Part shown: piece by piece, positions 1 through 12,291 of the stretch | How positions within the stretch are numbered: the first letter of the stretch is position 1 | Layout: each line of letters starts with the position of its first letter | Source of the DNA: an uncultured Angelakisella sp. | Lineage (GTDB): Bacteria; Bacillota; Clostridia; Oscillospirales; Ruminococcaceae | Direction: 5' to 3' | DNA: 12,291 nucleotides | Assembly (NCBI GenBank): GCA_947564495.1 | Contig: CANOCD010000012.1 | Span: forward strand, 1-12,291 | The notes under the pieces: model-generated | Seen by the model: the letters and a program-made list of their open reading frames with translations, nothing else | What the model was told of the DNA's origin: nothing | Database searches by the model: none | Program-made: the position numbers and the translations under genes

Positions 1-8
1 ACTACCCT

Positions 9-36
9 GCAAATACGCCTTTACAGGGCGTTTTGC
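9..36. terminator. Terminator-like hairpin at the left edge
   Basis: The arms ACGCC (15-19) and GGCGT (27-31) pair, and an outer GCAAA/TTTTGC pairing extends the stem with one bulged T. A short T run lies on the plus side (31-34). It could end a gene lying left of the window on the plus strand. No coding sequence is visible beside it, so its role is uncertain. Confidence 0.35.
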
Positions 37-59
37 AATATCAGCCTCTGGCCCGAGAA

Positions 60-131
60 AAGGCGGGGCCCGCCAGGGACCCGCCGTCCCCGCTAAAGGC
101 CGCCGGTAGGCGGCCCCTCTTGCTGGGCCCT
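60..131. repeat. GC-rich palindrome cluster
   Basis: Short perfect palindromes stand close together, the clearest being GGCCGCC-GGTA-GGCGGCC at 98-115, with a GGCGGG/CCCGCC palindrome at 62-74. No reading frame with a ribosome site is seen. The cluster belongs to the repeat-dense intergenic block that fills bases 1-840, and may be the outer part of the inverted-repeat structure that follows it. Confidence 0.45.
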
Positions 132-384
132 CGATGACACCGCAAGGTAGGGGAAGGCCGCCTGCGGGCGGCCACCTCTCCGGCCTCTGCGGAGGCCACC
201 TCCCCTTTCAGGGGAGGCACGGCCTAAGAGCCGCCTTCGGCGGTTGGCCGTGAAGGGTGCTTGCCGCTGACTTTCAGTACAAAAGCAAAGCCGTCGCCTT
301 CGCCAGGGCCTCCCCTGAAAGGGGAGGTGGTCCGAAGGACCGGAGAGGTGCCGCCGGAGGCGGCCCTACAGCCTTGCGGTCACC
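132..384. repeat. Inverted-repeat element with ~80-bp arms
   Basis: The left arm (132-218) and right arm (308-384) are imperfect inverted copies. Read inward, both contain a CCGCAAGG-like outer segment, a GGCCGCC palindrome, ACCTCTCCGG, a small hairpin, and the perfect palindrome CCTCCCCT-TTC-AGGGGAGG (199-217, and its complement at 309-327). The small hairpin has different but self-complementary sequences in the two arms: GGCCTC/GAGGCC at 182-197 and GGTCC/GGACC at 329-341. That suggests the folded form is kept. The spacer holds a nested hairpin, CACGGCC (218-224) with GGCCGTG (246-252) around CCGCC-TTC-GGCGG (231-243). No transposase is present. It looks like a non-autonomous, MITE-like intergenic repeat, or two head-to-head copies of a smaller repeat. 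Confidence 0.6.
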
Positions 385-411
385 GCCATCTCCCCTAACC
401 CGCCAGCCCAC

Positions 412-840
412 ACGTTCCGGATTCGGCCCCAGCCGGGGCCTGTCCGGAAGGCCAGCGACTACAAGCCGAAAGCGAGGGGCGCTCCTGCGGCTGGGTACCG
501 GTGCAGTCTCGTTACCGGCCGCAGGTTGTCACTTCGACAAAGCAAAGCCGGGGAAGGGTAACTTGCGACCCTTTCCCGGCTTCGTTGTTTTTTCCTGCGG
601 CCTGGTTTTAATAGGCCCGTTTTCGTTTGGTCGTTCGGTCAGCGGCCCGGTCCATACGTCCGTACAGACAGCCACCGCCTAGGGGCATTTCGCCCGCTGC
701 GGCGGGCGACCAGGGCGTCGCCCTGGACCTGTGCCCTAACGGGACTACGTCCCTTCGGGCACGTGGGCTACGCCCAGTCCTTTGAAAAAGGGCGGCCCTA
801 AACTTTGCCTGTCTCGGACTTTACCTTGTGCTTAGCCTTA
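412..840 (+). repeat. Structured dispersed repeat, copy 1
   Basis: This is the longest and most diverged of three related elements (the others are at 6221-6587 and 11266-11645). In order it holds a hairpin bounded by TCCGGA boxes (GGCCCC/GGGGCC stem), a CCTGCGGCTGG/CCGGCCGCAGG stem, a terminator hairpin (545-593), a CGCCCGC/GCGGGCG hairpin, a CCAGGGC-GTC-GCCCTGG hairpin, and a shared tail starting CTAAACTTTGCCTG. Relative to the other copies it has an insertion at 731-776 that itself forms two hairpins. The tail ends in GCCTTAC, whose TTA is the complement of the hydA stop codon. An open frame of 141 codons (257-682) runs through the copy but lacks a ribosome site and is judged non-coding. 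Confidence 0.8.
545..593. terminator. Terminator hairpin in repeat copy 1
   Basis: AAGCCGGGGAAGGG (545-558) pairs with CCCTTTCCCGGCTT (569-582) with one G-T wobble and a 10-base loop. A T-rich run follows on the plus strand (584-593). On the minus strand the stem is followed by a weaker TTTGC run. It is the first strong terminator downstream of hydA, so it probably ends the hydrogenase transcript. It lies about 245 bases past the stop codon. Confidence 0.6.
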
Positions 841-2586
841 CCCCCGGAACCGATCCAGCTTCCGGTAAGACGTATGCAGCACCTGGTGCGCCACATGGCT
901 CCCCGGCGTCTTGAGGAACTCCTTGTAGATCTGCTTCAGCACCGGGTTCTCATGGGACTTCCGGATCGGCAGGTTCTTGTCCTCCTCGTACAGCGCCGCC
1001 GCCCGCAGGGACTTAAGATCCACCCAGTTGCGGATTCGGGCCGGCTGCACCGGCTGCCCGCCGCCGTTGACACAGCCCCCCGGGCACCCCATGATCTCAA
1101 TGAAGTGGTAGGTCTTTTCCCCGCTCTTGATGCTGTCCAGCACCCGCTTGGCGTTGGCAAGCCCCGAGGCTACCGCCACGTTCAGGGTCAGATCCCCCAC
1201 CTGGTAGGTGGCCTCCTTGACCCCCTCGACCCCACGGACCTCCACGAAGTCCACAGGGGCGGCATCGCTGCCGGTGAGCCATTCCGCCGCCGTGCGGAGG
1301 GCCGCCTCCATGACGCCGCCGGTGGCCCCGAAGATGGCCGCCGCCCCGGTGGAGACCCCCATGGGGTCGTCAAACTCTTCATCGGGCAGGTTGGCGAAGT
1401 TGATCCCCGCCCGGTCGATCATCCGGGCAAGCTCCCGGGTGGTCAGGGCCACGTCCACGTCGGGGACCCCCGCCGCCGCCTCGTCCTCCCGGGCCACCTC
1501 GAACTTCTTGGCGGTGCAGGGCATGATGCCCACCACAAAGATGTCCTTGGGGTCCAGCCCCATCCGCTTGGCGTACCAGGTCTTGGTCAGGGCGCCGAAC
1601 ATCTGCTGGGGGGATTTGCAGGTGGAAAGGTTCTCCACGAACTCGGGGTAGTAATGCTCGCAGTAGTTGACCCAGCCGGGGGAGCAGGAGGTGATCATGG
1701 GCAGGGTGCCGCCCTTCTTGATCCGCTCCACCAGCTCGTTGGCTTCCTCCACGATGGTGAAGTCCGCCGCCAGGTCGGTGTCAAAGACCCCGTCGAAGCC
1801 CAGCCGCCGCAGGGCGGAGACCATCTTGCCCTTGACGTTGGTGCCGATGGGCATATCGAAGGCTTCGCCCAGGGTGACCCGGATGGAGGGCGCCGTCTGG
1901 ACCACCACGTGCTTAGAGGGGTCGGAAAGGGCCCGCCACACGTCCTTGGTGTTGTCCTTTTCGGCGATGGCCCCGGTGGGGCAGACCACCACGCACTGTC
2001 CGCAGGAGACGCAGGCCACGTCGGCCAGGCTCTGCTCAAAGGCGCAGCCGATGTGGGTGGCAAAGCCCCGGTCGTTGGGGCCGATGACCCCCACCGCCTG
2101 CCACTTCTGGCAGGCCGCCACGCACCGGCGGCAGAGGACGCACTTGTCGTTGTCCCGGTACATATGCTTGGCGGTGTCGTCAAACTCGTGCTTGGGGTTC
2201 TCCCCGGCGTAAACGTCCTCGTCGTAAACGCGGAAGTCCTTGCACAGCTTCTGCAGCTCGCAGTTGCCGCTGCGGACGCAGGAAAGGCACTTCTTCTTGT
2301 GGGTGGAAAGGATCAGCTCCAGGTCGATCTTGCGGGAGGCGAACACCCGCTTGGAGTTGGTCAGCACCTCCATCCCCTCGGCCACCGGGTAGACGCAGGA
2401 GGCCACCAGGTTCTTCATCCCCTTGACCTCCACCACGCAGATGCGGCAGGCGCCGATCTCGTTGATGTCCTTCAGGAAGCAGAGGGTGGGGATGTCGATG
2501 GCCAGCTTCCGGGCCGCCTCCAGGATGGTGGTCCCCTCGGGCACCGTCACCGGGAGACCGTTGATCGTTAAATTCACCATTTTCAT
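838..2586 (-). CDS. hydA: [FeFe] hydrogenase catalytic subunit HydA (HndD-like)
   Basis: A 582-aa catalytic subunit of an NAD(P)-linked, probably electron-bifurcating, cytoplasmic [FeFe] hydrogenase that makes or uses H2. The N-terminus holds a [2Fe-2S] ferredoxin domain (C36, C47, C50, C64). A His-Cys [4Fe-4S] site follows (H96, C100, C103, C109), then two ferredoxin clusters (C149/152/155 with C202, and C192/195/198 with C159). The H-cluster motifs are TSCSPGW (299-305), MPCTAKKFE (355-363) and MGCPGGCVNGGGQP (499-512, with C501 and C505). The first motif carries Ser where TSCCPxW has its second Cys. A C-terminal small-subunit-like region is present (KSHENP, then LHTSYRK). The length is normal for the family. 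The first ATG is preceded by GGAGGAG at 8-9 bases; an ATG two codons later is an alternative. The gene is last in the operon, 16 bp after hydB. The maturases HydE, HydF and HydG are not in the window. Confidence 0.95.
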   Translation of the reverse strand: MKMVNLTINGLPVTVPEGTTILEAARKLAIDIPTLCFLKDINEIGACRICVVEVKGMKNLVASCVYPVAEGMEVLTNSKRVFASRKIDLELILSTHKKKCLSCVRSGNCELQKLCKDFRVYDEDVYAGENPKHEFDDTAKHMYRDNDKCVLCRRCVAACQKWQAVGVIGPNDRGFATHIGCAFEQSLADVACVSCGQCVVVCPTGAIAEKDNTKDVWRALSDPSKHVVVQTAPSIRVTLGEAFDMPIGTNVKGKMVSALRRLGFDGVFDTDLAADFTIVEEANELVERIKKGGTLPMITSCSPGWVNYCEHYYPEFVENLSTCKSPQQMFGALTKTWYAKRMGLDPKDIFVVGIMPCTAKKFEVAREDEAAAGVPDVDVALTTRELARMIDRAGINFANLPDEEFDDPMGVSTGAAAIFGATGGVMEAALRTAAEWLTGSDAAPVDFVEVRGVEGVKEATYQVGDLTLNVAVASGLANAKRVLDSIKSGEKTYHFIEIMGCPGGCVNGGGQPVQPARIRNWVDLKSLRAAALYEEDKNLPIRKSHENPVLKQIYKEFLKTPGSHVAHQVLHTSYRKLDRFRG

Positions 2587-2602
2587 GACTGCAGTCTCCT
2601 CC

Positions 2603-4390
2603 TTACTTCTTCACGATGGCCCCGAAGCGGCACTTTTCGATGCAGACGCCGCACTTGACGCACTTTTCGGGGTCGATGACGTGGGCTTCCTTCACCTTGC
2701 CGGTGATGGCCCCGGTGGGGCAGTTCCGGGCGCAGAGGGTGCAGCCCTTGCACTTATCGGGAAGGATCTGGATGGTGAGGAGGCTCTTGCAGACCCCGGC
2801 GGGGCAGCGCTTTTCCACAATGTGGGCGATGTACTCATCCCGGAAGTATTTGAGGGTGGAAAGCACCGGGTTGGGGGCCGTCTGGCCCAGGCCGCAGAGG
2901 GCGTTTTCCTTGATGTGGTAGCACAGCGTCTCCAGCTTGTCCAGGTCCTCCATGGTGGCCTTGCCCTTGGTGATCTTGTCCAGCAGCTCGTAAAGGCGCT
3001 TGGTGCCGATGCGGCAGGGGGTGCATTTGCCGCAGCTCTCGTCCACGGTGAACTCCAGGAAGAACTTGGCGATGTCCACCATACAGGTGTCCTCGTCCAT
3101 GACGATGAGGCCGCCGGAGCCCATCATGGATCCGATCTCGATGAGGTTGTCGTAGTCCACCGGGATGTCCAGGTACTGGGCGGGGATGCAGCCGCCGGAG
3201 GGGCCGCCGGTCTGGGCGGCCTTGAACTTCTTCCCATTGGGGATGCCGCCGCCGATCTCCTCCACGATCTCCCGCAGGGTGGTGCCCATGGGGACCTCCA
3301 CCAGGCCGGTGTTGTGGATCTTGCCGCCCAGGGCGAAAACCTTGGTGCCCTTGGACTTTTCGGTGCCGATGGAAGAGAACCACTCGGGCCCTTTGAGGAT
3401 GATCTGGGGGACGTTGGCGTAGGTCTCCACGTTGTTGAGGATGGTGGGCTTGCCGAACAGGCCCTTCACCGCCGGGAAGGGGGGACGGGGGCGGGGCTCG
3501 CCCCGGCGGCCCTCGATGGAGGTCATGAGGGCGGTCTCTTCGCCGCAGACAAAGGCCCCGGCGCCCAGGCGGATGTCAATATCGAAGTTGAAGCCGGTGC
3601 CCAGGATGTTCTGGCCCAGAAGGCCCAGCTCCCGGGCCTGGCCGATGGCCACCTGGAGCCGCTTGACGGCGATGGGGTACTCGGCCCGGACGTAGATGTA
3701 GCCCTGCTGGGCCCCGATGGCGTAACCGGCGATGGCCATAGCCTCCAGCACCACGTGGGGGTCGCCCTCCAGGACGGAGCGGTCCATGAAGGCGCCGGGG
3801 TCGCCCTCGTCGGCGTTGCAGCAGACGTATTTGATCCCCTTGGGCTGGGCCGCCGCAAAGGCCCACTTCCGGCCGGTGGGGAAGCCGCCGCCGCCCCGGC
3901 CCCGGAGGCCGGAATCCAGGATGCACTGGACCACCTGCTCGGGGGTCATCTCGGTGAGGGCCTTGCCCAGGGCCATGTAGCCGTCATAGGCGATGTATTC
4001 GTTGATGTTCTCCGGGTCGATGACGCCGCAGTTTTTCAGGGCGACCCGCATCTGCTTTTTGTAGAACTGGGTCTCCCCCAGGCTCTTGACGGTGTCCTCC
4101 TGGACCGTCTCGGAGTACAAAAGGCGCTTGACGATGCGGCCTTTCAGGAGGTGCTCCTCCACGATCTCCGGAACGTCCTCGGGCTTGACCTGGGAGTAGA
4201 AGGCGCCCTCGGGGTAGACCACCACGATGGGGCCCAGGGCGCAGAGGCCGAAGCAGCCGGTCTTGATGACCTTGATCTCTTTTTCCAGCCCGGCGGAGGC
4301 CAGCTCCCGCTCAAAGGCGGTGATGATCCGGGCGCTGCCGGAAGATGTGCAGCCGGTGCCGCCGCAGACCAGGACATGGGAACGGAACAT
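2603..4390 (-). CDS. hydB: Hydrogenase flavoprotein subunit HydB (NuoF/HndC-like)
   Basis: A 595-aa NAD(H)- and FMN-binding subunit that passes electrons between NAD(H) and the HydA clusters. Domains in order: an N-terminal thioredoxin-like [2Fe-2S] domain (C9, C14, C46, C50); the NuoF core with the glycine-rich FMN/NAD segment [16 protein letters not shown] (161-176) and [12 protein letters not shown] (193-204); a [4Fe-4S] site (C453, C456, C459, C499); and a C-terminal 2x[4Fe-4S] ferredoxin (C547/550/553/557 and C577/580/583/587). This four-part layout of about 600 aa is the Thermotoga/Acetobacterium HydB type, longer than plain NuoF. The start has GGGAGG 7 bases upstream. It lies 18 bp after the HndB-like gene and 16 bp before hydA, so it is in the same transcript. 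In characterised homologues the flavin in this subunit is the proposed bifurcation site; I infer the same here. Confidence 0.95.
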
Positions 4391-4408
4391 AGCTCATCCT
4401 CCCTTCTA

Positions 4409-4786
4409 TCAGCCCTGGGCGCCGCTGGCGCCGATGGTGTACTCGGTGACAGGGGTGCCGTTGACCAGATGCTGGCTGACGATGGCGGGGACCATGCCGG
4501 GGGTGACCTTGACGTAGGTCACCTTCTCCTTGCCGGGCTCAAAGACCTCCACCACCGGCTCGTACTGGCAGATGCCGATGCAGCCGGTCTGGCCCACCGC
4601 CACGTTGGAAAGGCCCCTTTTGGCCACTTCCTCGGTGAAGGCGGCCAGGACGGGACGGGCGCCGGCGGCGATGCCGCAGGTGGCCATCCCCACCACCACC
4701 CGGATGCTGCTGTCATCGTCGTGGCGGATTCCCACACGGCCTTTCATCTGCTCCCGAAGGGCCTGGAGTTCTGCTAAACTTTTCAT
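4409..4786 (-). CDS. HndB-like thioredoxin-fold [2Fe-2S] protein
   Basis: A 125-aa small iron-sulfur protein of the hydrogenase operon, corresponding to HndB of Desulfovibrio and the small HydD of Acetobacterium-type clusters. The segment VVGMATCGIAAGARP (31-45) and the later TGCIGIC (67-73) are typical of the family. Only three cysteines are present (C37, C69, C73), against the four seen in HydC and in the HydB N-terminus. A longer in-frame start at 4882 would read through the end of the preceding gene. The chosen ATG at 4786 has GGGAGG 11 bases upstream and leaves a 37-bp gap. It probably acts as an electron-transfer or assembly subunit; its exact role is not settled in the family. Confidence 0.85.
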   Translation of the reverse strand: MKSLAELQALREQMKGRVGIRHDDDSSIRVVVGMATCGIAAGARPVLAAFTEEVAKRGLSNVAVGQTGCIGICQYEPVVEVFEPGKEKVTYVKVTPGMVPAIVSQHLVNGTPVTEYTIGASGAQG

Positions 4787-4823
4787 GGATGATGTATCCT
4801 CCCTTGTTTCTCTCTGTGGTATG

Positions 4824-5375
4824 TCATTCGTTCGCCAGAAGCTCGGCGGTGTTCTCCCGGAGGTAGTCCCCCAGGAAGCCAAGGACCTCGGGGGAATCCA
4901 GGGGGACCTCCCCCAGGATCTCCCGGAACTGGCGGGTGTCCATCACCATCTCCCGGCCATCCTTCCGCCGGGTGTACACCCAGTCGATATGCGGGTTGCA
5001 CTGGACCAGGGTGGAGACGGTGCCGTTCATATCCCCCAGGGGCATCCGGTCGATGTTGGTGAGCCCAAAAGTCGCCGTCACCGTGGTGCCCTCCCCCGGC
5101 TGGCTCTGGATGGTCAGGTCCCCGCCGGAAAGCTGTGCGGCCATCCGGAAGAAGGGGACCCCCAGCCCCACCTTGCGGGTGGTGCGGGTGGTGTAGAAGG
5201 GGTCGATGACGGTCTGGACCTGCTCCGGGGTCATGCCTTTGCCGTTGTCCCGGATGACGATGGTCAGCCGGTCGGCGGCGGTGTCCTCCTCCACGGTGAT
5301 CTCCACCAGGGAGGCGCCCGCCCGCACCGAGTTTTCGGCCACGTCCAGGACGTTGAGGGAAAGCTCCTGCATCAT
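4824..5375 (-). CDS. GHKL-type ATP-binding protein of the hydrogenase operon
   Basis: A 183-aa protein with a lone histidine-kinase-type ATP-binding domain: N-box VAENSVRAGAS (12-22), G1 box DNGKGM (43-48), lid and G2 region TTRKVGLGVPFF (65-76), and GEGTTVT (94-100). There is no phospho-acceptor histidine domain, membrane segment or sensor domain. After the fold comes a tail of about 75 residues (108-183) holding QCNPHIDWVYTRR. Genes of this type sit between the NuoE-like and HndB-like genes in Acetobacterium-style hyd clusters (the ORF there called hydE, unrelated to the radical-SAM maturase HydE). A role as a regulatory ATPase or anti-sigma-like switch is inference. Tandem ATGs at 5375 and 5372 follow AAAGGAGG at about 10 bases; a longer frame would overlap hydC. 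It lies 16 bp after hydC. Confidence 0.85.
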   Translation of the reverse strand: MMQELSLNVLDVAENSVRAGASLVEITVEEDTAADRLTIVIRDNGKGMTPEQVQTVIDPFYTTRTTRKVGLGVPFFRMAAQLSGGDLTIQSQPGEGTTVTATFGLTNIDRMPLGDMNGTVSTLVQCNPHIDWVYTRRKDGREMVMDTRQFREILGEVPLDSPEVLGFLGDYLRENTAELLANE

Positions 5376-5391
5376 AACAGGGCCCCCTCCT

Positions 5392-5892
5392 TTAGGCGTT
5401 CTGGTACTTGGCCAGGATGCCGTCGATGTCGTCGGGGACCAGGCGGCCATAGACGTCGTCGTTGACGGTCATGACCGGGGCCAGGCCGCAGGCGCCCACG
5501 CACCGGCAGGCCTCCAAAGAGAACTCCCCGTCGGGGGTGCACTCCCCGGTGGTGATGCCCAGCTTTTCCTGGAGCTTGGCGTAGACATCCCCGGAGCCCT
5601 TGACATAGCAGGCGGTGCCCAGGCAGACCGAGACCTTGTACCGGCCTTTGGGGTTGAGGGAAAACTGGGAATAGAAGGTGGCCACCCCGTAGACCTCCTC
5701 CAGGGAGACCCCCATGGTGGAGGCGATGATTTCCATCACCTCGATGGGAAGGTAGCCGTAGATCTCCTGGGCGCCTTGCAGGACAGGCATCAGGGCGCCG
5801 TCCTGGTCCCGCAGCCGCTGGATGAGAGCCCGGAGTTCCCGCTCCTGGTTCTCGGTCCCCTTAAAGGGGAGCTTGCAGACACGATTTGACAT
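5392..5892 (-). CDS. hydC: Hydrogenase subunit HydC (NuoE/HndA-like, [2Fe-2S])
   Basis: A 166-aa small subunit, first gene of the hydrogenase operon. It has a helical N-terminal half followed by a thioredoxin-like [2Fe-2S] domain. The cluster ligands are C90, C95, C131 and C135, in SVCLGTAC and CRCVGACG. Length and layout match NuoE, HndA and HydC. Family members sit beside the NuoF-like subunit near the FMN and take part in electron transfer between NAD(H), flavin and HydA. The frame stays open up to 6081, but that upstream Met lies at the -35 region of the predicted promoter. The ATG at 5892 has AAGGAGG (5904-5910) upstream, so it is chosen. Confidence 0.92.
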   Translation of the reverse strand: MSNRVCKLPFKGTENQERELRALIQRLRDQDGALMPVLQGAQEIYGYLPIEVMEIIASTMGVSLEEVYGVATFYSQFSLNPKGRYKVSVCLGTACYVKGSGDVYAKLQEKLGITTGECTPDGEFSLEACRCVGACGLAPVMTVNDDVYGRLVPDDIDGILAKYQNA

Positions 5893-6046
5893 TGTTCTCC
5901 GTTCCTCCTTCGGATACTCTCCGCCGGGGGCCGGACCAGGCGCAAGGGTGAGCGCCAAAGCCGGCCGCCGGTCCTCTCCGTTGCCATTTTCGCCGCCCGT
6001 CCCGGGCCCCGTCCGGGGGATAGGGAAGCGGCTTTCCGCAGGTTTG
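5893..6046 (-). other. GC-rich leader of the hyd operon
   Basis: About 150 bases separate the predicted transcription start from the hydC ATG. The leader is rich in short self-complementary stretches, such as GCGG/CCGC near the start and CCCC/GGGG shortly after. I recognise no known riboswitch. A short ATG frame starts at 5987 without a ribosome site and is probably not translated. Apart from the ribosome site at 5904-5910 nothing else can be supported. Confidence 0.4.
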
Positions 6047-6051
6047 ACATT

Positions 6052-6080
6052 ATTATAACATAGGGAACGCTGGATTTCCA
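6052..6080 (-). promoter_or_regulatory. Promoter of the hyd operon
   Basis: On the minus strand a perfect -10 (TATAAT, 6052-6057) is preceded by the extended -10 TG motif. A -35-like TGGAAA (6075-6080, four of six matches to TTGACA) lies 17 bases upstream. Transcription would start near 6045. It is a standard housekeeping sigma promoter, which suggests solid basal expression. I see no clear Rex or FNR palindrome next to it. Confidence 0.7.
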
Positions 6081-6109
6081 TAGCAGGAAGCCCTTTTTGT
6101 AAAATTTTC

Positions 6110-6156
6110 CGGGCGGGCTAGCGCCCGCTGGCACACCCTACGGGAGGCTGTGCGGG
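6110..6156. repeat. Two small hairpins between repeat copy 2 and the hyd promoter
   Basis: GCGGGC-TAGC-GCCCGC (6113-6128) is followed by GCACA (6131-6135) pairing with TGTGC (6149-6153) around an inner CCC-TAC-GGG. They resemble the short palindromes in the other intergenic gaps. On the minus strand the first hairpin is followed by an A/T-rich stretch, but there is no clean U run, so a terminator role is doubtful. Confidence 0.35.
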
Positions 6157-6220
6157 GGCCTGGCTTGTGCCTGGAGTCGGAGGCTGCGGAAGGCGGCAGG
6201 CTGTAGGGCTCCTTTGCCAG

Positions 6221-6587
6221 GCCGCAATCGAGACAGGCAAAGTTTAGGGCCGCCCTTTTCAAAGGGCGGTAGGTCCAGGGCGACGCCCTGGTCGCCCGCC
6301 GCAGCGGGCGAAATGTCCCTAGGCGGTGGCGGTCTGTAGGGCGTATAGACCGGGCCGCCGAACCAAGGCCGCAAACCTATAAAACCAGGCCGCACGGAAA
6401 ATAACAAAGCCGGGGAAGGGTTGCAAGTGACCCTTCCCCGGCTTTGTTTTCTCGAAGTGACAACCTGCGGCCGGTAACGAGACTGCACCCACACCCAGCC
6501 GCAGGAGCGCCCCTCGCTGGCGCCCTGTAGGCGCTGCCCTTCCGGACAGGGCCCCCGCAGGGGGCCCGAATCCGGAACGCACGGACC
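6221..6587 (-). repeat. Structured dispersed repeat, copy 2
   Basis: A 367-bp copy in inverted orientation relative to copies 1 and 3. Compared by eye with copy 3 it differs by about 13 substitutions plus one rebuilt hairpin and a shortened tail. The hairpin that reads GGCCCC-AGCC-GGGGCC in copy 3 reads GGGCCCC-CTGC-GGGGCCC here, so the stem is kept with a new sequence. The tail after TCTCGATT is truncated and lacks the GCCTTAC end found in the other copies. It starts about 50 bases after the permease stop codon and fills the gap before the hyd promoter. Open frames of 97 and 200 codons cross it but are judged non-coding. Confidence 0.85.
6403..6450. terminator. Two-way terminator hairpin in repeat copy 2
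   Basis: AACAAAGCCGGGGAAGGG (6403-6420) and CCCTTCCCCGGCTTTGTT (6431-6448) form a perfect 18-bp stem with a 10-base loop. It is flanked by T-rich runs on both strands (minus side ATTTTCC, plus side TTTTC). It lies about 185 bases past the permease stop and is the likely end of the Bce-type operon transcript. It can act in both directions. Confidence 0.75.
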
Positions 6588-6634
6588 AGCGGCCAAGAAC
6601 CCCGCCAGGCAACGCTCAAACCCGCCTCGCCCCG

Positions 6635-8584
6635 TCACCCCTCCGGCAGCACATTCCGCCTCAAACTGGTGTAAGCCAGCAGAATATAAATCCCGTAGAT
6701 GAAGAAGAACACCGCCACCGAAGTGACCAGGATCACCCACGGGCTGGAAGCCCCCACCATCACCCCGGGCTCGGGCAGCCGGGCCAGATGAAGAATAAAC
6801 GGTACCCCGATGAGCAGGGGCGGCAGAGCCGGCAGAGCGTAGTACACAGCGAACTGGACCCCCAAAGCCCGGGCCATCTCCCGGCGGACCATACCCAGCT
6901 TTTGCAGAAGGGCGAACTGCTTCCTGTACCGCTCCACCTCACTGAGCTGCTGGATGGTAAGAATGGTGGCTGCGGTCATGGTGAGAGCCAACGCCAGGTA
7001 GTAGAGGGGAAAAACACAGAGGGCGGTCTGGGAAGCCACCTCCGCCTCCGCCTGGGCCTTGGTGGTGATGGTGTCCCCAAGACCGGTGCCCTCCCAGATC
7101 TTGTCCATCACCACGGTGAGGTTGTAGAAGTCCTCAAAGGGGACCGGCTCCCTGGTCTTGGCGGCGTAGGCCGTGTGGTTGACAGCCAGCCCCTCCGCCG
7201 CCTCATCGGGGACCACCAGGATGTACCCCCGGCCGTTCTCTCCCTCGCTTTGGGAGAGATGCTCGGCGTGGACGCCCCCCGGCCGGAGGGTGAGGTCCCC
7301 CAGGGTGACGGGCTGGTCATAGGCTTTCAGAATGTCCTCCAGGTAGCCCATACAGTGGAGAAGGTACTGCCCCTCCCCCAGCTCCACCGGGGGATACCCG
7401 GCGACGGACCGCAGGGCGGCGTAGTCGCTCCACCGGAGGACCGGGTCCCGGTCGAAGTTGAAATAGTGGTAGACCGTCTTGGATTCCAGGTAGTCCCGGA
7501 CCCTGTGGTCCTCGGCAAGATATACCTGGTAGGATACCGACTCCTCCACCGGGATGTGGTCCCGGATGTAGTCCTGATAGAGGCTGTAGTCCCGGTCCTT
7601 CCCCTCCATGCCCAGGTAGAGGTCGAAGCAGGCGGTGTCCGACGCCCGGCCCAGGAACAGCCCCCGGAACACCAGCCCCGTCCCTTCGGAGATGAGGGTG
7701 GCGGTGAAGATCATGGCCAGGGCGGCCATGAGGGCCCCCATGGTGGCCAGCTTGGCGGTGAGGGTCCGGAACACCAGGAGGTTCTGCCCCCGGTACTTCC
7801 GGGCGGGACGGCGGTCGAAGAAGGCGGGCACCCCCGAGGCGAAGCTGAGGAAGAAGGCGAACAGGGCCACGATGAGGCACCCCGCCCCGGCGGTGGCCAC
7901 GGGGAGGCTGGAGACCATGAGGAGGGCCGTCCCCAGGATGCCCAGGAGAATGGACCCGGTAAAGATCCAGACCCGGCCCTTCCCGGTGCGGATCACCGCC
8001 CCCTCGTTCTGCCGGTCGGAGTAGATCAGGTCGTGGATGTTGGCCCTGCGGATGTACCTGCGGCTCCGGCCCAGGGCCCGGAGGTAGATGAGGCCGAAGC
8101 AGGCCGCTGTCAGCAGGACGGCGGGGAGGGAGAATCCAAGGGCCAGGCGGTAGGTCTGGCCAAAGAGGGCGAAGGTCATGGCCCGGAGCATTTGGTAGAG
8201 AAGTCCCCCCAGGGCGACGCCCAGGCCCAGGGCGCAGCCCCCCACGGCCAGGTTCTCCAGGAAGAAAAGCCGGGCCACCTGGCCGCTCTCCAATCCCACC
8301 AGGAGATAGAGGCCCAGCTCCCGCCCCCGGCGGCGGAGCATGAACCGGGTGGCGTAGGCCACCAGCCAGCCAAAAACGCAGACCACCACGACGTCCGCCA
8401 GGGCTACCATCACCGGCAGCATGGAAAGGCCGGTGGAGAGGGTGGCGATCTCCCGGGAAAAGACCAGGGCGTTGAAGGAGTAGAGGAGGGCGGCGGCCAT
8501 CACCACCGTGACGAAGTACACCAGGTAATCTTTGGCCTGGCGCTTGGCGTTACGCAGGGAGAGCTTAGATAACGTCACTGACAT
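6635..8584 (-). CDS. BceB-type ABC transporter permease (FtsX family)
   Basis: A 649-aa membrane permease of a peptide-antibiotic resistance and sensing transporter. Hydrophobic segments are visible at about 19-42, 55-79, 110-135, 148-170, 205-225, 230-252 and 275-300. A polar domain of about 215 residues (301-515) follows, then segments at 520-545, 578-600 and 612-640. Ten segments with one large extracellular domain between the seventh and eighth is the BceB layout. In that family the domain and membrane part bind lipid-linked cell-wall intermediates or peptides such as bacitracin; the ligand here is unknown. The start overlaps the ATPase gene by 20 bp, a sign of coupled translation. The ATG at 8584 has a G-rich tract only 2 bases upstream; a GTG two codons later has better spacing and is an alternative. 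A longer upstream frame inside the ATPase gene is rejected. Confidence 0.9.
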   Translation of the reverse strand: MSVTLSKLSLRNAKRQAKDYLVYFVTVVMAAALLYSFNALVFSREIATLSTGLSMLPVMVALADVVVVCVFGWLVAYATRFMLRRRGRELGLYLLVGLESGQVARLFFLENLAVGGCALGLGVALGGLLYQMLRAMTFALFGQTYRLALGFSLPAVLLTAACFGLIYLRALGRSRRYIRRANIHDLIYSDRQNEGAVIRTGKGRVWIFTGSILLGILGTALLMVSSLPVATAGAGCLIVALFAFFLSFASGVPAFFDRRPARKYRGQNLLVFRTLTAKLATMGALMAALAMIFTATLISEGTGLVFRGLFLGRASDTACFDLYLGMEGKDRDYSLYQDYIRDHIPVEESVSYQVYLAEDHRVRDYLESKTVYHYFNFDRDPVLRWSDYAALRSVAGYPPVELGEGQYLLHCMGYLEDILKAYDQPVTLGDLTLRPGGVHAEHLSQSEGENGRGYILVVPDEAAEGLAVNHTAYAAKTREPVPFEDFYNLTVVMDKIWEGTGLGDTITTKAQAEAEVASQTALCVFPLYYLALALTMTAATILTIQQLSEVERYRKQFALLQKLGMVRREMARALGVQFAVYYALPALPPLLIGVPFILHLARLPEPGVMVGASSPWVILVTSVAVFFFIYGIYILLAYTSLRRNVLPEG

Positions 8585-9323
8585 CACCCCCCAGCGCCGC
8601 CAGCACGTCCAAGATCTCGTGGTAAAAGACAGGCCGCCCCCGATCCCCTCGGAACAGCTCGTTAAAGACCCGGCCATCTTTGAGGAACAGCACCCGCCCG
8701 GCATAGCTGGCGCTGTAGGCGTCGTGGGTGACCATCAAAATGGTGGCCCCCGGGTCCCGGTTCACGGCGGTCATCAGTTCCAGCAGGTTCTTGGATGCTT
8801 TGGAATCCAACGCCCCGGTGGGCTCGTCGGCCAGGAGGAGGGACTGCCCCGCCACCATGGCCCGGGCGCAGGCGGCCCGCTGCTTCTGCCCCCCGGAGAC
8901 CTGGTAGGGGAATTTTTCCAGAATGTCGATGATGCCCAGCTTCCGGGCCATCTCCCGGACCCGGCCCTGGACCTCCCCCGGGTCCCGGTGGTTCAGGGCC
9001 AGGGCCAGGCCGATGTTCTCCTCGATAGTGAGGGTGTCCAGGAGGTTGAAGTCCTGAAAGACGAAGCCCAGCCGCTCCCGGCGGAACCGGGCCAGCTCGG
9101 CCTCGGAGAGCTCGTCCACCCGGACCCCGTCCAGGAGGATGCTCCCGGCGCTCACCCGGTCGATGGTGGAGACGCAGTTGAGAAGGGTGGTCTTGCCCGA
9201 CCCGGAAGCCCCCATGATGGCCAGGAACTCCCCATCCTTCACCTGAAAGCTCACCCGGTCCAGGGCCTTGGTGACGTTGTTCTTGCTCCCGTAGTATTTT
9301 TCGATGTTCTGTACCTGTAACAT
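8565..9323 (-). CDS. BceA-type ABC transporter ATP-binding protein
   Basis: A 252-aa cytoplasmic ATPase that powers the neighbouring permease. Motifs are complete: Walker A GASGSGKTT (38-46), Q-loop Q90, signature VSGGQKQ (142-148), Walker B LLLADE (162-167) and H-loop H200. It resembles the MacB/LolD/BceA class, which pairs with FtsX-type permeases. The ribosome site AAAGGAGGT (9331-9339, minus strand) is a full anti-SD match with 8 bases to the ATG, the strongest in the window. A 78-bp gap after the kinase gene holds a separate promoter and operator, so transporter genes can be raised above the regulator genes. The 3' end overlaps the permease start. Confidence 0.93.
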   Translation of the reverse strand: MLQVQNIEKYYGSKNNVTKALDRVSFQVKDGEFLAIMGASGSGKTTLLNCVSTIDRVSAGSILLDGVRVDELSEAELARFRRERLGFVFQDFNLLDTLTIEENIGLALALNHRDPGEVQGRVREMARKLGIIDILEKFPYQVSGGQKQRAACARAMVAGQSLLLADEPTGALDSKASKNLLELMTAVNRDPGATILMVTHDAYSASYAGRVLFLKDGRVFNELFRGDRGRPVFYHEILDVLAALGGDVSDVI

Positions 9324-9351
9324 TGCGGCGACCTCCTTTGTCTGTGGCTCT

Positions 9352-9357
9352 ATGATA
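9352..9357 (-). promoter_or_regulatory. Candidate -10 box for the transporter genes
   Basis: TATCAT on the minus strand (five of six matches to TATAAT), directly preceded by TG, puts the start near 9346 and gives a short leader of about 22 bases. No good -35 stands at the proper distance. The nearest TTG-like hexamer, TTGGAT at 9380-9385, is 22 bases away. A weak -35 fits a promoter that depends on an activator bound upstream. Confidence 0.45.
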
Positions 9358-9399
9358 CACCAAAAACAAAGGCCCTTGTATCCAAGTCGGTTTCATTTT

Positions 9400-9417
9400 C
9401 CTTACAGTTCCGTAAGG
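9400..9417. promoter_or_regulatory. BceR-like operator upstream of the transporter genes
   Basis: CCTTACAGTTCCGTAAGG is an inverted repeat with 6-bp arms and a 6-base centre. It contains TTACA-N4-CGTAA, one base away from the TNACA-N4-TGTAA consensus known for BceR of Bacillus subtilis. It covers the last codons of the kinase gene and is centred about 63 bases upstream of the predicted start, a usual place for an activator. Binding by the regulator encoded upstream is inference. Confidence 0.6.
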
Positions 9418-10412
9418 TCCTCCCGGGACGGAAAAGTGAGGGTGACGGTGGTCCCCTCCCCCTCCTCCGAGGCGATGGACAGGCCCAGTTCCAGAAAACC
9501 GGCCAGCTTTTTGCAGAGGTAGAGGCCCATCCCGGTGGAACTCCCCCGGGTCCTGCCGTTGCTGCCGGTGAAGCCCCGGTCAAAGACCCGGGACAGCTCC
9601 CAGGCGGGGATGCCCATGCCGTTGTCCCGGATGATGAGCTGGGTCTGTTTCCCCAGGGGCCGGGCCGTCAGGGTGATGACCGGCTCCTCCCTCCGGTACC
9701 GGGCGGAGTTTTGGAGCAGCTGGCCCAGGAGGAAGGCGGCCCACTTCTCGTCGGTGTAGACGGGGCGGTCCAGCCCCTGGGTCTCCACCCGGACCCCCTG
9801 CTGGATGAGAAGGGAGCGGTGGGTCTCGATGGCCCGGGCGGCGATCTCCCCCAGGTCCACCTGGCGGAGGAGGCAGTCCCGCTCCGGGCTTTGGGCCCGG
9901 GCGTAGAAAAGGGCCCGCTCGATGTGGGCCTCGATCTGGGAGAGCTCCGCCAGGAGCTTCCGCCGGGTCTCCCCGTCCAGCTCCCGGCAGATGAGCCGGG
10001 CGGCGGTGACAGGGGTCTTGACCTCGTGGACCCAGCGTTCCACATACTCCCGGTATTCCCCCTGGGAGGCCCGGGCGTCGGAGACCGCCCCGGCCATGGC
10101 CCGCCCCGCCCGGCGGCAGAGGTCAAAGAGCCGCCGCTCGTAGAGGTCCCCGGGGGCCGGGGCGCACTCGGCAAAGAGGTACTTCTGGTCCAGCCCCTCC
10201 AGGACGGCCTCCAGCTCCCGGAGCCTGTTCCGCTGGCGGAGGAAGTCGGCGGTCTGGACCCCCAGAAAGACCAGGAGCAGGGGGATACCCAGGAGGGCCA
10301 GCACCCCGGGTTGGGTCCCGGTGGCCAGAAGGAAGGCTCCCCCCAGAAGGAGGCAGAGGAGCAGGAGGGCCACCCGCCCCAGGCGGTCGGAGAGAAATTC
10401 CCGGAAGGTCAT
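9402..10412 (-). CDS. BceS-type intramembrane-sensing histidine kinase
   Basis: A 336-aa sensor kinase. Two close hydrophobic helices at about 13-32 and 36-53 are joined by only a few residues, so there is almost no extracellular sensor. This is the mark of intramembrane-sensing kinases, which read the state of a partner ABC transporter. The dimerisation segment is REYVERWVHEVKTPV with H129 as phospho-acceptor. The catalytic domain shows N-box QLLQNSARYR (231-240, N235), G1 DNGMGIP (263-269) and G2 TGMGLYL (293-299). Its ATG overlaps the regulator's TGA by four bases (ATGA), so the two are translationally coupled. Its last codons lie inside the predicted operator. Confidence 0.92.
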   Translation of the reverse strand: MTFREFLSDRLGRVALLLLCLLLGGAFLLATGTQPGVLALLGIPLLLVFLGVQTADFLRQRNRLRELEAVLEGLDQKYLFAECAPAPGDLYERRLFDLCRRAGRAMAGAVSDARASQGEYREYVERWVHEVKTPVTAARLICRELDGETRRKLLAELSQIEAHIERALFYARAQSPERDCLLRQVDLGEIAARAIETHRSLLIQQGVRVETQGLDRPVYTDEKWAAFLLGQLLQNSARYRREEPVITLTARPLGKQTQLIIRDNGMGIPAWELSRVFDRGFTGSNGRTRGSSTGMGLYLCKKLAGFLELGLSIASEEGEGTTVTLTFPSREDLTEL

Positions 10413-11077
10413 AGCTGATACCCCATTCCCCGGCGGGTCTTGATGGCGCCGGCCAGCCCCAGCTCAGCCAGTTTTCCCCGCAGCCGGGTCATATTGACGC
10501 TGAGGGTGTTGTCGTCGATGTAGATCTGGCTGTCCCAGAGAGTCTCCACAAGGTCGGCCCGGGAGACGATCTTCCCGGCCCGCTCCATGAGGCAGGCCAG
10601 GATCTGGTGTTCGTTCCGGGTCAGCTGGGCGGTCCGCCCGTTGGCCGAGACTGTCCCCTTGGTCAGGCTGAGGCGCAGCCCCCCGGCCTCCAGGGTGTCC
10701 GCTGGTTCGCTTCCCCCGCCCCTTCGGCGGAGGACGGCTTTGATCCGGGCCAGGAGGACCGGGATGCTGTAGGGCTTGGTGATGTAGTCGTCGCCCCCCA
10801 GGCTCAGGGCCCGGACCTCGTCCAGGCCGGAGTCCCGGCTGGTGACGAAGATCACCGGGGCGGGGGTGACCTTCCGCAAGGCGGCGCAGAGGGAGAAGCC
10901 GTCCCGCCCGGGGAGCCCGATGTCCAGGAGGACGAGGTCGGGGCGGGCGTCGGCGGCTTGGGTCGGGACGTCGGTGAAGTCGGTGACGGGGAGGGGGGCG
11001 TAGCCTTCGTTTTCCAGCAGGAGGGCCAGCTCCTCCCGGATGGCGGGGTCGTCCTCTATGATCAGGATCTTTTCCAT
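10409..11077 (-). CDS. BceR-type OmpR/PhoB-family response regulator
   Basis: A 222-aa two-component regulator. The receiver domain (1-117) has the acidic pair D9/D10, phospho-acceptor D52, T79 and K101. The winged-helix DNA-binding domain (130-222) ends in the usual RRGMGYQL. Length and motifs are complete. It is expected to be phosphorylated by the adjacent kinase and to activate the transporter genes, probably through the palindrome at 9400-9417. The frame is open upstream to 11146, but that start overlaps the predicted promoter. The ATG at 11077 has AAGGAG 9 bases upstream and begins the family-typical MEKILIIEDD. First gene of the operon. Confidence 0.93.
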   Translation of the reverse strand: MEKILIIEDDPAIREELALLLENEGYAPLPVTDFTDVPTQAADARPDLVLLDIGLPGRDGFSLCAALRKVTPAPVIFVTSRDSGLDEVRALSLGGDDYITKPYSIPVLLARIKAVLRRRGGGSEPADTLEAGGLRLSLTKGTVSANGRTAQLTRNEHQILACLMERAGKIVSRADLVETLWDSQIYIDDNTLSVNMTRLRGKLAELGLAGAIKTRRGMGYQL

Positions 11078-11116
11078 GGCGGGGGGCTCCTTCTTTTTGG
11101 GATGTGGTGTGGGTAT

Positions 11117-11146
11117 ATTGTACGACTTTTTGGGGGGCGGGCGCAA
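11117..11146 (-). promoter_or_regulatory. Promoter of the two-component operon
   Basis: On the minus strand TACAAT (11117-11122, five of six) follows a poor -35-like TTGCGC (11141-11146) with an 18-base spacer. A start near 11110 gives a leader of about 33 bases before the regulator ATG. Confidence 0.5.
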
Positions 11147-11147
11147 G

Positions 11148-11165
11148 GGCTTTAAGTTGAAAGCC
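11148..11165. promoter_or_regulatory. Dyad next to the regulator promoter
   Basis: GGCTTT-AAGTTG-AAAGCC is a perfect 6-bp inverted repeat with a 6-base centre, placed immediately upstream of the -35-like hexamer. It could bind an activator or the response regulator itself, but its sequence does not resemble the 9400-9417 site. The remaining bases 11166-11265, up to repeat copy 3, show nothing I can support. Confidence 0.35.
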
Positions 11166-11265
11166 GCCTTTCTCTTTGTTTCTTGTGGTTCCGAAAACCT
11201 TGGTGAAAAACCGGGGAGGGGGTATTCTCCATCGTGGCATGGCGGTGAGTGCCTCTGTTATCCCA

Positions 11266-11645
11266 GGTCCGTCCGTTCCGGATTCGGCCCCAGCCGGGGC
11301 CTGTCCGGAAGGGCAGCGCCTACAGGGCGCCAGCGAGGGGCGCTCCTGCGGCTGGGTGCGGGTGCAGTCTCGTTACCGGCCGCAGGTTGTCACTTCGAGA
11401 AAACAAAACCGGGGAAGGGTAACTTGCGGCCCTTCCCCGGCTTTGCTATTTTTTGTGCGGCCTGGTTTTATAGATTTGCGGCCTTGGTTCGGCGGCCCGG
11501 CCCATACGACCTACAGACCGCCACCGCCTAGGGGCATTTCGCCCGCTGCGGCGGGCGACCAGGGCGTCGCCCTGGACCTACCGCCCTTTGAAAAGGGCGG
11601 CCCTAAACTTTGCCTGTCTCGATTTTTACCTTGCGGTCGGCCTTA
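11266..11645 (+). repeat. Structured dispersed repeat, copy 3
   Basis: A 380-bp copy, nearly identical to copy 2 over most of its length. The hairpin series is complete: TCCGGA-bounded GGCCCC/GGGGCC; GCGCC-TACAG-GGCGC; CCTGCGGCTGG/CCGGCCGCAGG; the terminator hairpin (11404-11454); CGCCCGC/GCGGGCG (11540-11557); CCAGGGC/GCCCTGG (11559-11575); and CCGCCCTT/AAGGGCGG (11581-11600). The tail ends in GCCTTAC, and its TTA (11643-11645) is the complement of the SPFH-gene stop codon, as in copy 1 with hydA. Open frames of 163 and 204 codons cross it without ribosome sites. Confidence 0.85.
11404..11454. terminator. Two-way terminator hairpin in repeat copy 3
   Basis: CAAAACCGGGGAAGGG (11404-11419) pairs with CCCTTCCCCGGCTTTG (11430-11445) with one A-C mismatch and a 10-base loop. 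It is followed on the plus strand by CTATTTTTT. It lies about 190 bases past the SPFH-gene stop and probably separates that transcript from the two-component operon. Confidence 0.7.
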
Positions 11646-12291
11646 CTCCTGCCCCCCATTGATCGACACAAACGGGTTCACGCTGTCCCCCATCACCTGG
11701 GGATACTTCCCGTCCCATTTCTGCACCCGCTGCAACTCAATGTACTCCGGGCTCTGCTGTAACTGCTTCTGGATCGCCTCGATGGCATAAGCCTCGGCGT
11801 CCGCCCGGATCTTCTGGCTCTCCGCCTCCGCCTGGGCCTCGATCACCGTCTGCCTCGCCAGCTCCTCCTTCTCCTTGGTCTTGTTCTGCATTTTGAGGGC
11901 CTCCTGCTCGGCCACCACCTTGGCCCGGATCGCCTCCTCGAACCCGTCCTCAAAGTCCAGGTTCTCAATGGCAAAGGACACCACGATGATCCCGCTCTGC
12001 CCCAGGCTCTCCCGCAGCTTCTCCTCGATGCTCTCCTGGACCACCGTCCGGTTCTGCACCAGGTCCTCCGCCTTGTACTGCCCGATCTCGTTCTTCACGA
12101 TGGACTGCATCTGGGGGATGAGCAGCTTGGATTCCACGTTGCCGATGCCGATGTTCCGGATGATATTGGAAAGCTCCGACCGGTCATAAACGTAGTTCAG
12201 CTTGGTCTGGATGCCCTCCACCGTCTGGGTGTCCTTGGTGTAGGCGTTGGCGTCCATCTGGTACATCTGCTCCCGCACATCCACCTGGCGG
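11643..12291 (-). CDS. SPFH/prohibitin-family membrane protein (partial, 5' end missing)
   Basis: The last 215 or so codons of a gene that runs off the right edge. The frame is open to the final base, so the GTG at 12284 is not taken as the start. The visible part begins inside the SPFH (band 7) domain, with VDVREQ and then AYTKDTQTVEG. A helical segment follows, rich in Glu, Ala and Gln (EQEALKMQNKTKEKEELARQ onward), typical of the coiled coil of prohibitin, HflC and stomatin relatives. It ends in a short C-terminal tail with VNPFVSINGGQE. Such proteins form large ring-like membrane scaffolds and often modulate proteases or membrane domains; the specific role here is unknown. The stop codon lies at the very end of repeat copy 3. 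Confidence 0.85.
   Translation of the reverse strand, partial: RQVDVREQMYQMDANAYTKDTQTVEGIQTKLNYVYDRSELSNIIRNIGIGNVESKLLIPQMQSIVKNEIGQYKAEDLVQNRTVVQESIEEKLRESLGQSGIIVVSFAIENLDFEDGFEEAIRAKVVAEQEALKMQNKTKEKEELARQTVIEAQAEAESQKIRADAEAYAIEAIQKQLQQSPEYIELQRVQKWDGKYPQVMGDSVNPFVSINGGQE

What the first reader, a model, noticed from the sequence alone, without database searches (positions are those of the whole stretch)
412..11645. Three copies of a 370-430 bp multi-hairpin intergenic element, one after each transcription unit
Elements at 412-840 (+), 6221-6587 (-) and 11266-11645 (+) share the same order of about seven hairpins. Copies 2 and 3 differ by only about 13 substitutions plus one rebuilt hairpin. 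They lie downstream of the hyd operon, the Bce-type operon and the SPFH gene. No transposase is encoded. Such size, structure and placement fit a non-autonomous mobile repeat or a family of structured 3' RNA elements. I do not recognise it as a named family.
Basis: partly seen in the sequence, partly recalled or inferred. Interest (0 to 1): 0.7.

Follow-up and report, generated by a model that had tools for sequence, protein, structure and literature searches.

The report
Shuffled hairpin repeats at gene ends
A gut bacterium carries dozens of copies of a roughly 360-letter repeat made of swappable hairpins, usually docked right at the stop codon of a gene, and the copies appear to trade hairpins with each other so freely that they behave like a mixing population inside one genome.

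Summary
The three elements are real. The window's genome (same genus as an Angelakisella metagenome assembly; 59% complete) holds 57 covariance-model hits to the 5' domain; its sister species holds 68; the eight other genus genomes hold none. No Rfam family reaches its cut-off in the element.

The element is a modular, non-coding, non-autonomous interspersed repeat of the BOX/ERIC/BIME kind rather than one conserved RNA.

(1) Placement: in 32 of 42 copies with a right-hand neighbour, the 3' end lies within 10 nt of, or inside, the 3' end of a gene on the opposite strand; random placement gives 5.8 of 26 against 19 of 26 observed. The end abuts or supplies the stop codon.

(2) Shuffling: linkage between variable sites decays to near background beyond about 80 nt in both species. 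Hairpins act as exchangeable cassettes, pointing to ectopic gene conversion.

(3) Hairpin H4 is followed by five T in 25 of 27 copies, and by a T-rich run on the other strand in 21 of 27.

Stems covary, but no strand preference survives a composition control. No mobilising enzyme was found.

The parts
399..841 (+). Copy 1 (E1); conserved part begins at CGTTCC, 413 (399 adds the 14-nt semi-conserved left flank seen); its 3' end overlaps the stop codon of hydA (minus strand, 838-840). Carries an extra hairpin cassette
731..778 (+). Extra hairpin cassette of copy 1 (GTGCCC...GGGCAC plus GTGGGCTACGCCCA), found also in two other copies of the genome (L196, L204)
6226..6587 (-). Copy 2 (E2); lies after the Bce-type permease gene (stop at 6635) on the same strand; its 3' end does not touch a gene (exception to the rule)
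11266..11646 (+). Copy 3 (E3); its 3' end overlaps the stop codon of the SPFH gene (minus strand, 11643-11645)
11276..11310 (+). H1 of copy 3: stem TTCCGGAT/GTCCGGAA with an exchangeable tip (CCCCAGCCGGGG here); the sister species has TTCAAGA/TCTTGAA, both sides changed
11345..11386 (+). H3 of copy 3: sequence-conserved core CCTGCGGCTGG...CTCGTTACCGGCCGCAGG, followed by the near-invariant TTGTCACTTCGA
11404..11455 (+). H4 of copy 3: long hairpin plus T run, terminator-like; an exchangeable cassette
11531..11611 (+). Triple-hairpin 3' module of copy 3 (H6a 11540-11557, H6b 11559-11575, H6c 11581-11600, then CCTAAACTTT); related modules also occur alone in relatives
11605..11646 (+). Tail of copy 3, specific to the full element; read from the neighbouring gene such tails offer stop codons in more than one frame

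Best explanation
These are copies of a non-autonomous, modular interspersed repeat: a chain of about seven hairpins with short conserved anchors between them. It arose on the stem of two sister Angelakisella species, apparently by adding a 5' domain (H1-H4) to an older triple-hairpin module. It spread to dozens of gene 3' ends and persists there because it is tolerated: it docks at or beside a stop codon with its 3' end towards the gene, its tail supplies stop codons, and its H4 hairpin looks like a terminator that can close the transcript. The copies exchange hairpin cassettes by ectopic gene conversion or template switching between the conserved anchors, in tracts of some tens of bases, which spreads compensated stem variants through the genome. 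Shown: copy number, distribution, placement, lack of coding, cassette reassortment, terminator-like sequence. Inferred: that spread was by transposition in trans, that gene conversion is the exchange process, that H4 terminates transcription, and that tolerance explains the placement. Not shown: which enzyme moves it.
For: 57 model hits in the genome and 68 in the sister species; 0 in the 8 other genus genomes, three of which are at least 90% complete; 2 of 297 family genomes, the same two. A SecA tree puts the two carriers together (100/98), so one origin suffices. Placement: 32 of 42 copies with an opposite-strand gene end within 10 nt of the element's end or inside it; 19 of 26 with both neighbours against a random mean of 5.8, highest of 20,000 simulations 14. 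In the 42 copies with a readable tail, the stop codon lies 36-38 nt from AAACTTT in 15 and between -2 and +51 in 35. At five of seven gene ends compared (in the other two the alignment stopped short of the gene end) G001 orthologues end within a few codons of the same place without the element. Shuffling: mean r2 0.373 at 2 nt or less falls to 0.033 at 80-160 nt (shuffled 0.029; n=41) in G000, and 0.281 to 0.021 (shuffled 0.018; n=61) in G005. The decay holds for site pairs that cannot be base pairs. 39 of 45 cassette pairs have P of 0.05 or more in 27 copies. The special cassette of copy 1 recurs in two other copies. H4 is followed by five T in 25 of 27 copies; the three H4 hairpins have the longest stems among 18 terminator-like hits of the window (9.6 expected).
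Against: No target-site duplication was found in 37 copies and no mobilising gene was identified, so transposition is inferred. Exchange is not complete: quarter-by-quarter Mantel tests keep correlations (r up to 0.39 in G000 quarters 2-3 and 0.36 in G005 quarters 3-4), 6 of 45 cassette pairs have P below 0.05 where about 2 are expected, and G000 r2 at 40-80 nt is still 0.066. The genomes are fragmented (377 and about 310 contigs). Copy 2 and nine others of 42 break the docking rule. In G005, whose elements are longer composites, docking was not seen with the fixed element end that I used (37 antisense, 23 sense neighbours). Gene calls are from a home-made caller.
Confidence: 0.68

Rival explanations
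1. A family of functional structured 3' untranslated RNA elements, kept at gene ends because the transcribed hairpins stabilise or process mRNA.
For: Fixed position at stop codons and fixed orientation in most copies; covariation in stems above shuffles and slid controls (score 0.133 against 0.067, sd 0.003; slid at most 0.036); three or four gene ends, secA among them, are followed by the element in both species.
Against: Neither strand folds better after composition control (plus lower in 11 of 27). At docked genes the transcribed strand is the minus strand, while the invariant G-U pairs lie on plus (weak, since the structure was predicted on plus). Hairpins are swapped whole, 8 of 10 genus genomes lack the 5' domain, and G001 orthologues lack it at the gene ends compared.
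Confidence: 0.17
2. Simple accumulation of terminators and palindromes at gene ends, homogenised by gene conversion, without any mobile history.
For: H4 is terminator-like; relatives carry other palindromic sequences at the same gene end (hydA); the triple module alone follows secA in G009.
Against: A roughly 360-nt order of seven modules with a specific core and tail in dozens of places is hard to build by local growth; it needs dispersal of the whole or of large parts.
Confidence: 0.08
3. The cassette shuffling is an artefact of metagenome assembly, with chimeric repeats.
For: G005 is a metagenome assembly by its title and G000 probably is; many contigs end inside or beside the element.
Against: Mean r2 has already fallen to 0.126 and 0.085 at 20-40 nt, well inside a read. 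The longest exact stretch shared by two resolved copies is 95 and 97 nt, as if contigs break rather than join on longer ones. Two separate assemblies show the same decay.
Confidence: 0.07
4. A standalone guide or scaffold RNA of an RNA-guided element (omega-RNA, reRNA, bridge-RNA like) whose nuclease is encoded elsewhere.
For: Large multi-hairpin element, conserved core, no target-site duplication.
Against: No Rfam family over its cut-off in the element (that HEARO is in the library is recalled); no strand preference; no nuclease among the ten window proteins and nine neighbouring proteins scanned. The genomes were not searched for IscB, TnpB or IS110.
Confidence: 0.03

Closest known systems
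BOX elements of Streptococcus pneumoniae and S. suis (PMC3049150, passages seen)
   Same: Modular hairpin repeats of variable length, clustering with other repeats; of 58 annotated genes overlapping BOX, 36 do so at the extreme 3' end with BOX supplying the stop codon, without strong evidence of truncation.
   Different: No sequence relation was tested. In the passages seen BOX varies by presence and number of boxB; here several different hairpins are exchanged as alleles, and one end docks on stop codons in a preferred orientation.
ERIC / RU-1 intergenic repeat units of Enterobacteriaceae (PMC2759123, passages seen)
   Same: Non-autonomous intergenic repeat; can fuse to a gene's 3' end and replace the stop codon.
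   Different: 127 bp (and 168, 103 bp units) rather than a chain of exchangeable hairpins of about 360 nt.
REP / REPIN / BIME mosaics with RAYT (PMC3116915: one passage; PMC2817692: search listing)
   Same: High-copy palindromic mosaics outside genes; gene conversion was proposed for REP in 1988 (title seen in a reference list).
   Different: No Y1_Tnp/RAYT gene found in either carrier; units are not 20-40 bp REPs (size from an abstract).
STAR elements of Staphylococcus aureus (PMC3532100, passages seen)
   Same: Interspersed intergenic repeats in many places.
   Different: There the authors considered recombination between loci and argued against it; here linkage decay indicates strong exchange.
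Pneumococcal SPRITE repeats (PMC3049150, passages seen)
   Same: Terminator-like repeats enriched near gene 3' ends.
   Different: A single 18-bp duplex with a uridine-rich tract.

Membership tests
BOX-like modular small interspersed repeats (as a kind) | Many copies, non-coding, no transposase inside | tested here: met
   57 and 68 model hits; no gene called inside the window's elements; no transposase among ten window proteins
BOX-like modular small interspersed repeats (as a kind) | Built of modules that vary between copies | tested here: met
   Cassette alleles and linkage decay
BOX-like modular small interspersed repeats (as a kind) | Sequence homology to boxA/boxB/boxC | not tested
   No BOX sequence was fetched; the exact core pattern matched only an Angelakisella assembly in genome contigs
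REP/REPIN-RAYT | RAYT (Y1_Tnp, PF01797) gene in the genome | tested here: not met
   0 matches in G000 and 0 in G005 (59% and 85% complete, so a gene could be missed); matches in 5 of 10 genus genomes, over the cut-off in 4
MITE of a DDE insertion sequence | Target-site duplication flanking each copy | tested here: not met
   37 full copies: matching of flanks stayed near background at every offset; highest z 4.8 among 1,890 offset pairs at only 32% matching. Old, eroded duplications are not excluded
MITE of a DDE insertion sequence | Parent transposase with matching terminal repeats | tested here: inconclusive
   No transposase in the window nor among 9 proteins in other copy-bearing contigs; genome incomplete, other families not searched
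Known structured RNA family (Rfam) | Match over the family's gathering score | tested here: not met
   Window: 8 matches, none reaching its cut-off; 8 further loci: 2 matches, only an FMN riboswitch over its cut-off, outside the element
Structured cis-RNA element | One strand folds better than the other and than shuffles | tested here: inconclusive
   Both strands fold better than shuffles (mean z -5.8 and -6.4); plus lower in 11 of 27
Structured cis-RNA element | Compensatory changes in stems | tested here: met
   103 copies: 5 of 29 pairs with both sides changed (10 of 500 shuffles reach that), 124 such cells and covariation score 0.133 (0 of 500 reach either); further pair types not above shuffles (90 of 500). 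Much of it is one split between the species

The most novel reading that the evidence does not exclude
A mobile repeat with two new traits: oriented docking onto the 3' ends of genes at stop codons by a system without detectable target duplication or HUH transposase, and a within-genome panmixia in which dozens of dispersed copies exchange hairpin cassettes on a scale below about 80 nt, fast enough to keep linkage near background and to spread compensated stem changes species-wide.
Probability: 0.35. Interest if true: 0.75.

Novelty: new variant of a known kind. Interest (0 to 1): 0.55.

Why it matters
Gene conversion among short intergenic repeats has been proposed since the 1980s but is hard to see. 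A family with dozens of diverged copies per genome, in two sister species, in which linkage decays like in a sexual population, makes it measurable. The docking at stop codons also asks how a non-coding repeat finds, or survives only at, gene ends.

Tried and rejected
Rfam scan of the window and of 8 loci: no family over its cut-off in the element; sub-threshold microRNA hits on H4 of copy 2 (28.6 bits against a cut-off of 100) were not followed. Target-site duplication scan: none. Strand preference from raw fold energy (plus lower in 24 of 27) was rejected after shuffles (11 of 27). RAYT/IS200-type transposase: not found in either carrier. Nine proteins from copy-bearing contigs, several lying between two copies: seven ordinary host genes, two without Pfam match. 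Linkage from paired stem positions alone was ruled out. Phage, plasmid and viral collections: no match (a 3' module pattern also 0 in viral contigs). Order-level sample: only the own genome, 1 of 394. A first try at a marker tree (RpoB domain) failed because G000 lacks a match; in the first SecA tree two rows (G002, G004) were wrong reading frames, and it was redone.

Rows dropped: one search lists 44 copies of G000 that do not run off their contig. For the count of 42 two rows with a mis-set start (L082, L212) fell out by the overlap filter; L075, also mis-set, stayed in as a non-antisense case there and fell out of the 26. The simulation allowed insertion up to 15 nt into a gene end. The 42 rows are a different set: all G000 rows with a readable tail, some without a 5' end. 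Gene calls around copies come from a home-made codon-usage caller. One search also printed five left-hand junctions, which were not informative. The alternative-pairing count has no chance control and only the first 12 values of each class were printed.

Papers: search listings; no paper on repeats of this genus was noticed among the 20 of 45 listed for 'Angelakisella' and 'repeat'. That panmictic cassette exchange among intergenic repeats is not in print is not claimed; the searches bearing on it were made, and neither listing showed it.
Full report
What is there. The window holds three copies of one repeat: 413-841 (+), 6226-6587 (-) and 11266-11646 (+). Each is a chain of hairpins: H1, a weak H2, H3, a long H4 followed by T-rich sequence, a variable H5 region, a triple hairpin (H6a-c), and a tail. 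Copies 2 and 3, folded alone, lie far below dinucleotide shuffles.

How many and where. Searching the window's genome by DNA gave 49 matches of all sizes. A covariance model of the 125-nt 5' domain, built from 35 copies, gave 57 hits in that genome and 68 in genome G005 of the same genus, some cut by contig ends, and none in the other eight genus genomes, three of which are at least 90% complete. In wider samples it was found in 2 of 297 family genomes, the same two, and in 1 of 394 order genomes, the own one. An exact pattern of the core over the species genomes of genome contigs matched 15 stretches, all from one Angelakisella metagenome assembly (the own genome may be left out there). Its contig lengths equal those of G005, for example 4389 and 7267, so I take it to be G005. 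Viral, phage and plasmid collections gave nothing. A SecA tree of the ten genus genomes makes the two carriers sisters (support 100/98), so one origin on their common stem is enough. Over 8,396 aligned bases G000 is 83.3% identical to G005 and 82.5% to G001.

Anatomy and history. Sequences like the triple-hairpin module also occur without the 5' domain in relatives: genus genomes G001, G003 and G009, and another genus, G011. At secA both carriers have the element starting right at the SecA stop codon. G009, the next relative, has only the triple module there, about 33 nt after the stop. In G001, G002, G003, G004, G006 and G008 I saw neither by eye in the stretch printed; G007 is truncated. This one locus suggests that the 5' domain was added to an older module. 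G005 copies mostly carry further modules on both sides. Flank comparison showed three shared right-hand sites (L055/L143, L070/L135, L205/L194) among 44 flanks from G000 and 60 from G005, and a fourth (L071/L161) at about 700 bp offset. Most sites therefore appear to differ, as far as nucleotide matches at E 1e-15 can tell.

Placement. With gene calls made by a codon-usage script, 42 copies had a usable right-hand neighbour. In 35 it lay on the opposite strand, and in 32 its 3' end lay within 10 nt of the element's end or inside it. Of the 26 copies with both neighbours, 19 did so. Random position and orientation in the same spacers gave 5.8 on average and never more than 14 in 20,000 simulations. 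Among 42 copies with a readable tail, the stop codon stands immediately before a GCCAAGC-like sequence, 36-38 nt from AAACTTT, in 15; in 8 the gene runs on to a stop inside the tail. At five of seven gene ends compared, orthologues in G001, which has no hit to the 5' domain, end within a few codons of the same place and are followed by unrelated sequence. The hydrogenase, read by hand, ends RKLDRFRG here, RKLDRFHQGKA in G001 and RKLDRFTAK in G009. So the insertions cost few or no codons. In G005, with a fixed element end that does not fit its longer composites, no docking was visible.

Shuffling of hairpins. Hairpins exist in several alleles that mostly differ on both arms and stay paired. For H4, CCGGGG.../...CCCCGG, CTAAGA.../...TCTTAG and CCAGGA.../...TCCTGG are seen among 27 aligned copies, beside a weaker fourth type. 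Alleles at different hairpins are almost independent: 6 of 45 cassette pairs have P below 0.05, about 2 being expected. Site-by-site linkage falls from r2 0.373 at 2 nt or less to 0.066 at 40-80 nt and 0.033 at 80-160 nt (shuffled 0.029) in 41 copies of G000, and from 0.281 to 0.023 and 0.021 (shuffled 0.018) in 61 copies of G005; four-gamete fractions reach 0.87 and 0.97. The decay is much the same for site pairs that cannot be base pairs. The extra hairpin of copy 1 occurs in two other copies. Against full mixing, Mantel tests on quarters keep correlations up to 0.39. Assembly chimerism is unlikely to explain decay within 40 nt; the longest exact stretch shared by two resolved copies is 95 and 97 nt.

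RNA or DNA? Covariation is present. On 103 copies from both species (90 of the loci held were given), the covariation score is 0.133 against 0.067 in shuffles, with at most 0.036 when slid; much of it is one species-wide change in H1, and the number of further pair types does not exceed shuffles. In the full-length alignment of 27 copies, 15 of 73 predicted pairs had both sides changed. But fold energies favour the plus strand only before composition control (24 of 27); with dinucleotide shuffles the plus z-score is lower in 11 of 27. The data therefore do not tell RNA from DNA hairpins. H3's 3' arm has exact complements of 7 nt or more both upstream and beyond H4 in 21 of the 24 values printed for the two main classes of 95 copies, without a chance control: a lead for an alternative fold, not a result.

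Mechanism. The best account is a non-autonomous modular repeat of the BOX/ERIC/BIME kind that has spread to gene ends and whose copies exchange hairpins by ectopic gene conversion or template switching. H4 is followed by five T on the plus side in 25 of 27 copies (copy 2 of the window is one of the two without) and by a T-rich run on the minus side in 21 of 27; with the stop codons in the tail this would make gene ends tolerant sites. Whether docking reflects targeting or selection is open. No mover was found: no RAYT-type gene in either carrier, no target duplication.

Comparison. BOX elements also supply stop codons at gene 3' ends (36 of 58 overlapping genes; PMC3049150, passages). ERIC units can fuse to gene ends (PMC2759123, passages). 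For STAR elements the authors argued against recombination between loci (PMC3532100, passages). The present family is a new sequence family, as far as searched here, of a known kind, with oriented docking and strong cassette exchange as distinguishing features.

Noticed in passing
window 196-412: Another palindromic repeat family (CCTCCCCTGAAAGGGGAGG with inverted partner, then GGCCCTACAGCCT...CCGCCAGCC) lies directly upstream of copy 1; parts of window 1-412 match upstream of ten other copies.
   Followed up: partly
window 6100-6225: GACTCCAGGCAC...GTAGGGTGTG module after copy 2; similar motifs recur in intergenic regions of other genus genomes.
   Followed up: no
G005 copies in L138, L160, L165, L188: An extra hairpin array (ATCTCCGCGCTAAG...CGCGCCTGCGGGC) is inserted in the loop of H6a in these four G005 copies.
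   Followed up: no
H3 3' arm in most copies seen: GGCCGCAGG (G000) or GGCCGCGGC (G005) has exact complements of 7 nt or more both upstream (H3) and beyond H4 in 21 of 24 values printed; the change between species appears on all three sides. No chance control.
   Followed up: partly
L207 (G000 C19): One G000 copy keeps the G005-type H1 stem (TTCAAGA), looking like an ancestral form.
   Followed up: no
L196:658-793 (-) and L060:3534-3826 (-): FMN riboswitch (107 bits, over its cut-off) and a T-box-like leader (61 bits, below its cut-off of 93) in other contigs of the genome.
   Followed up: no
L303 (G007 C306) end: The SecA reading frame of this contig ends in DRSEERRVGKECRS, which looks like translated sequencing-adapter sequence (recognised from memory), suggesting adapter left at the contig end.
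   Followed up: no
contig ends in G000 and G005: Several contigs end at the same point of the element (142 nt after its start in L077, L084, L087, L089), so the repeat breaks the assembly and true copy numbers are probably higher.
   Followed up: partly
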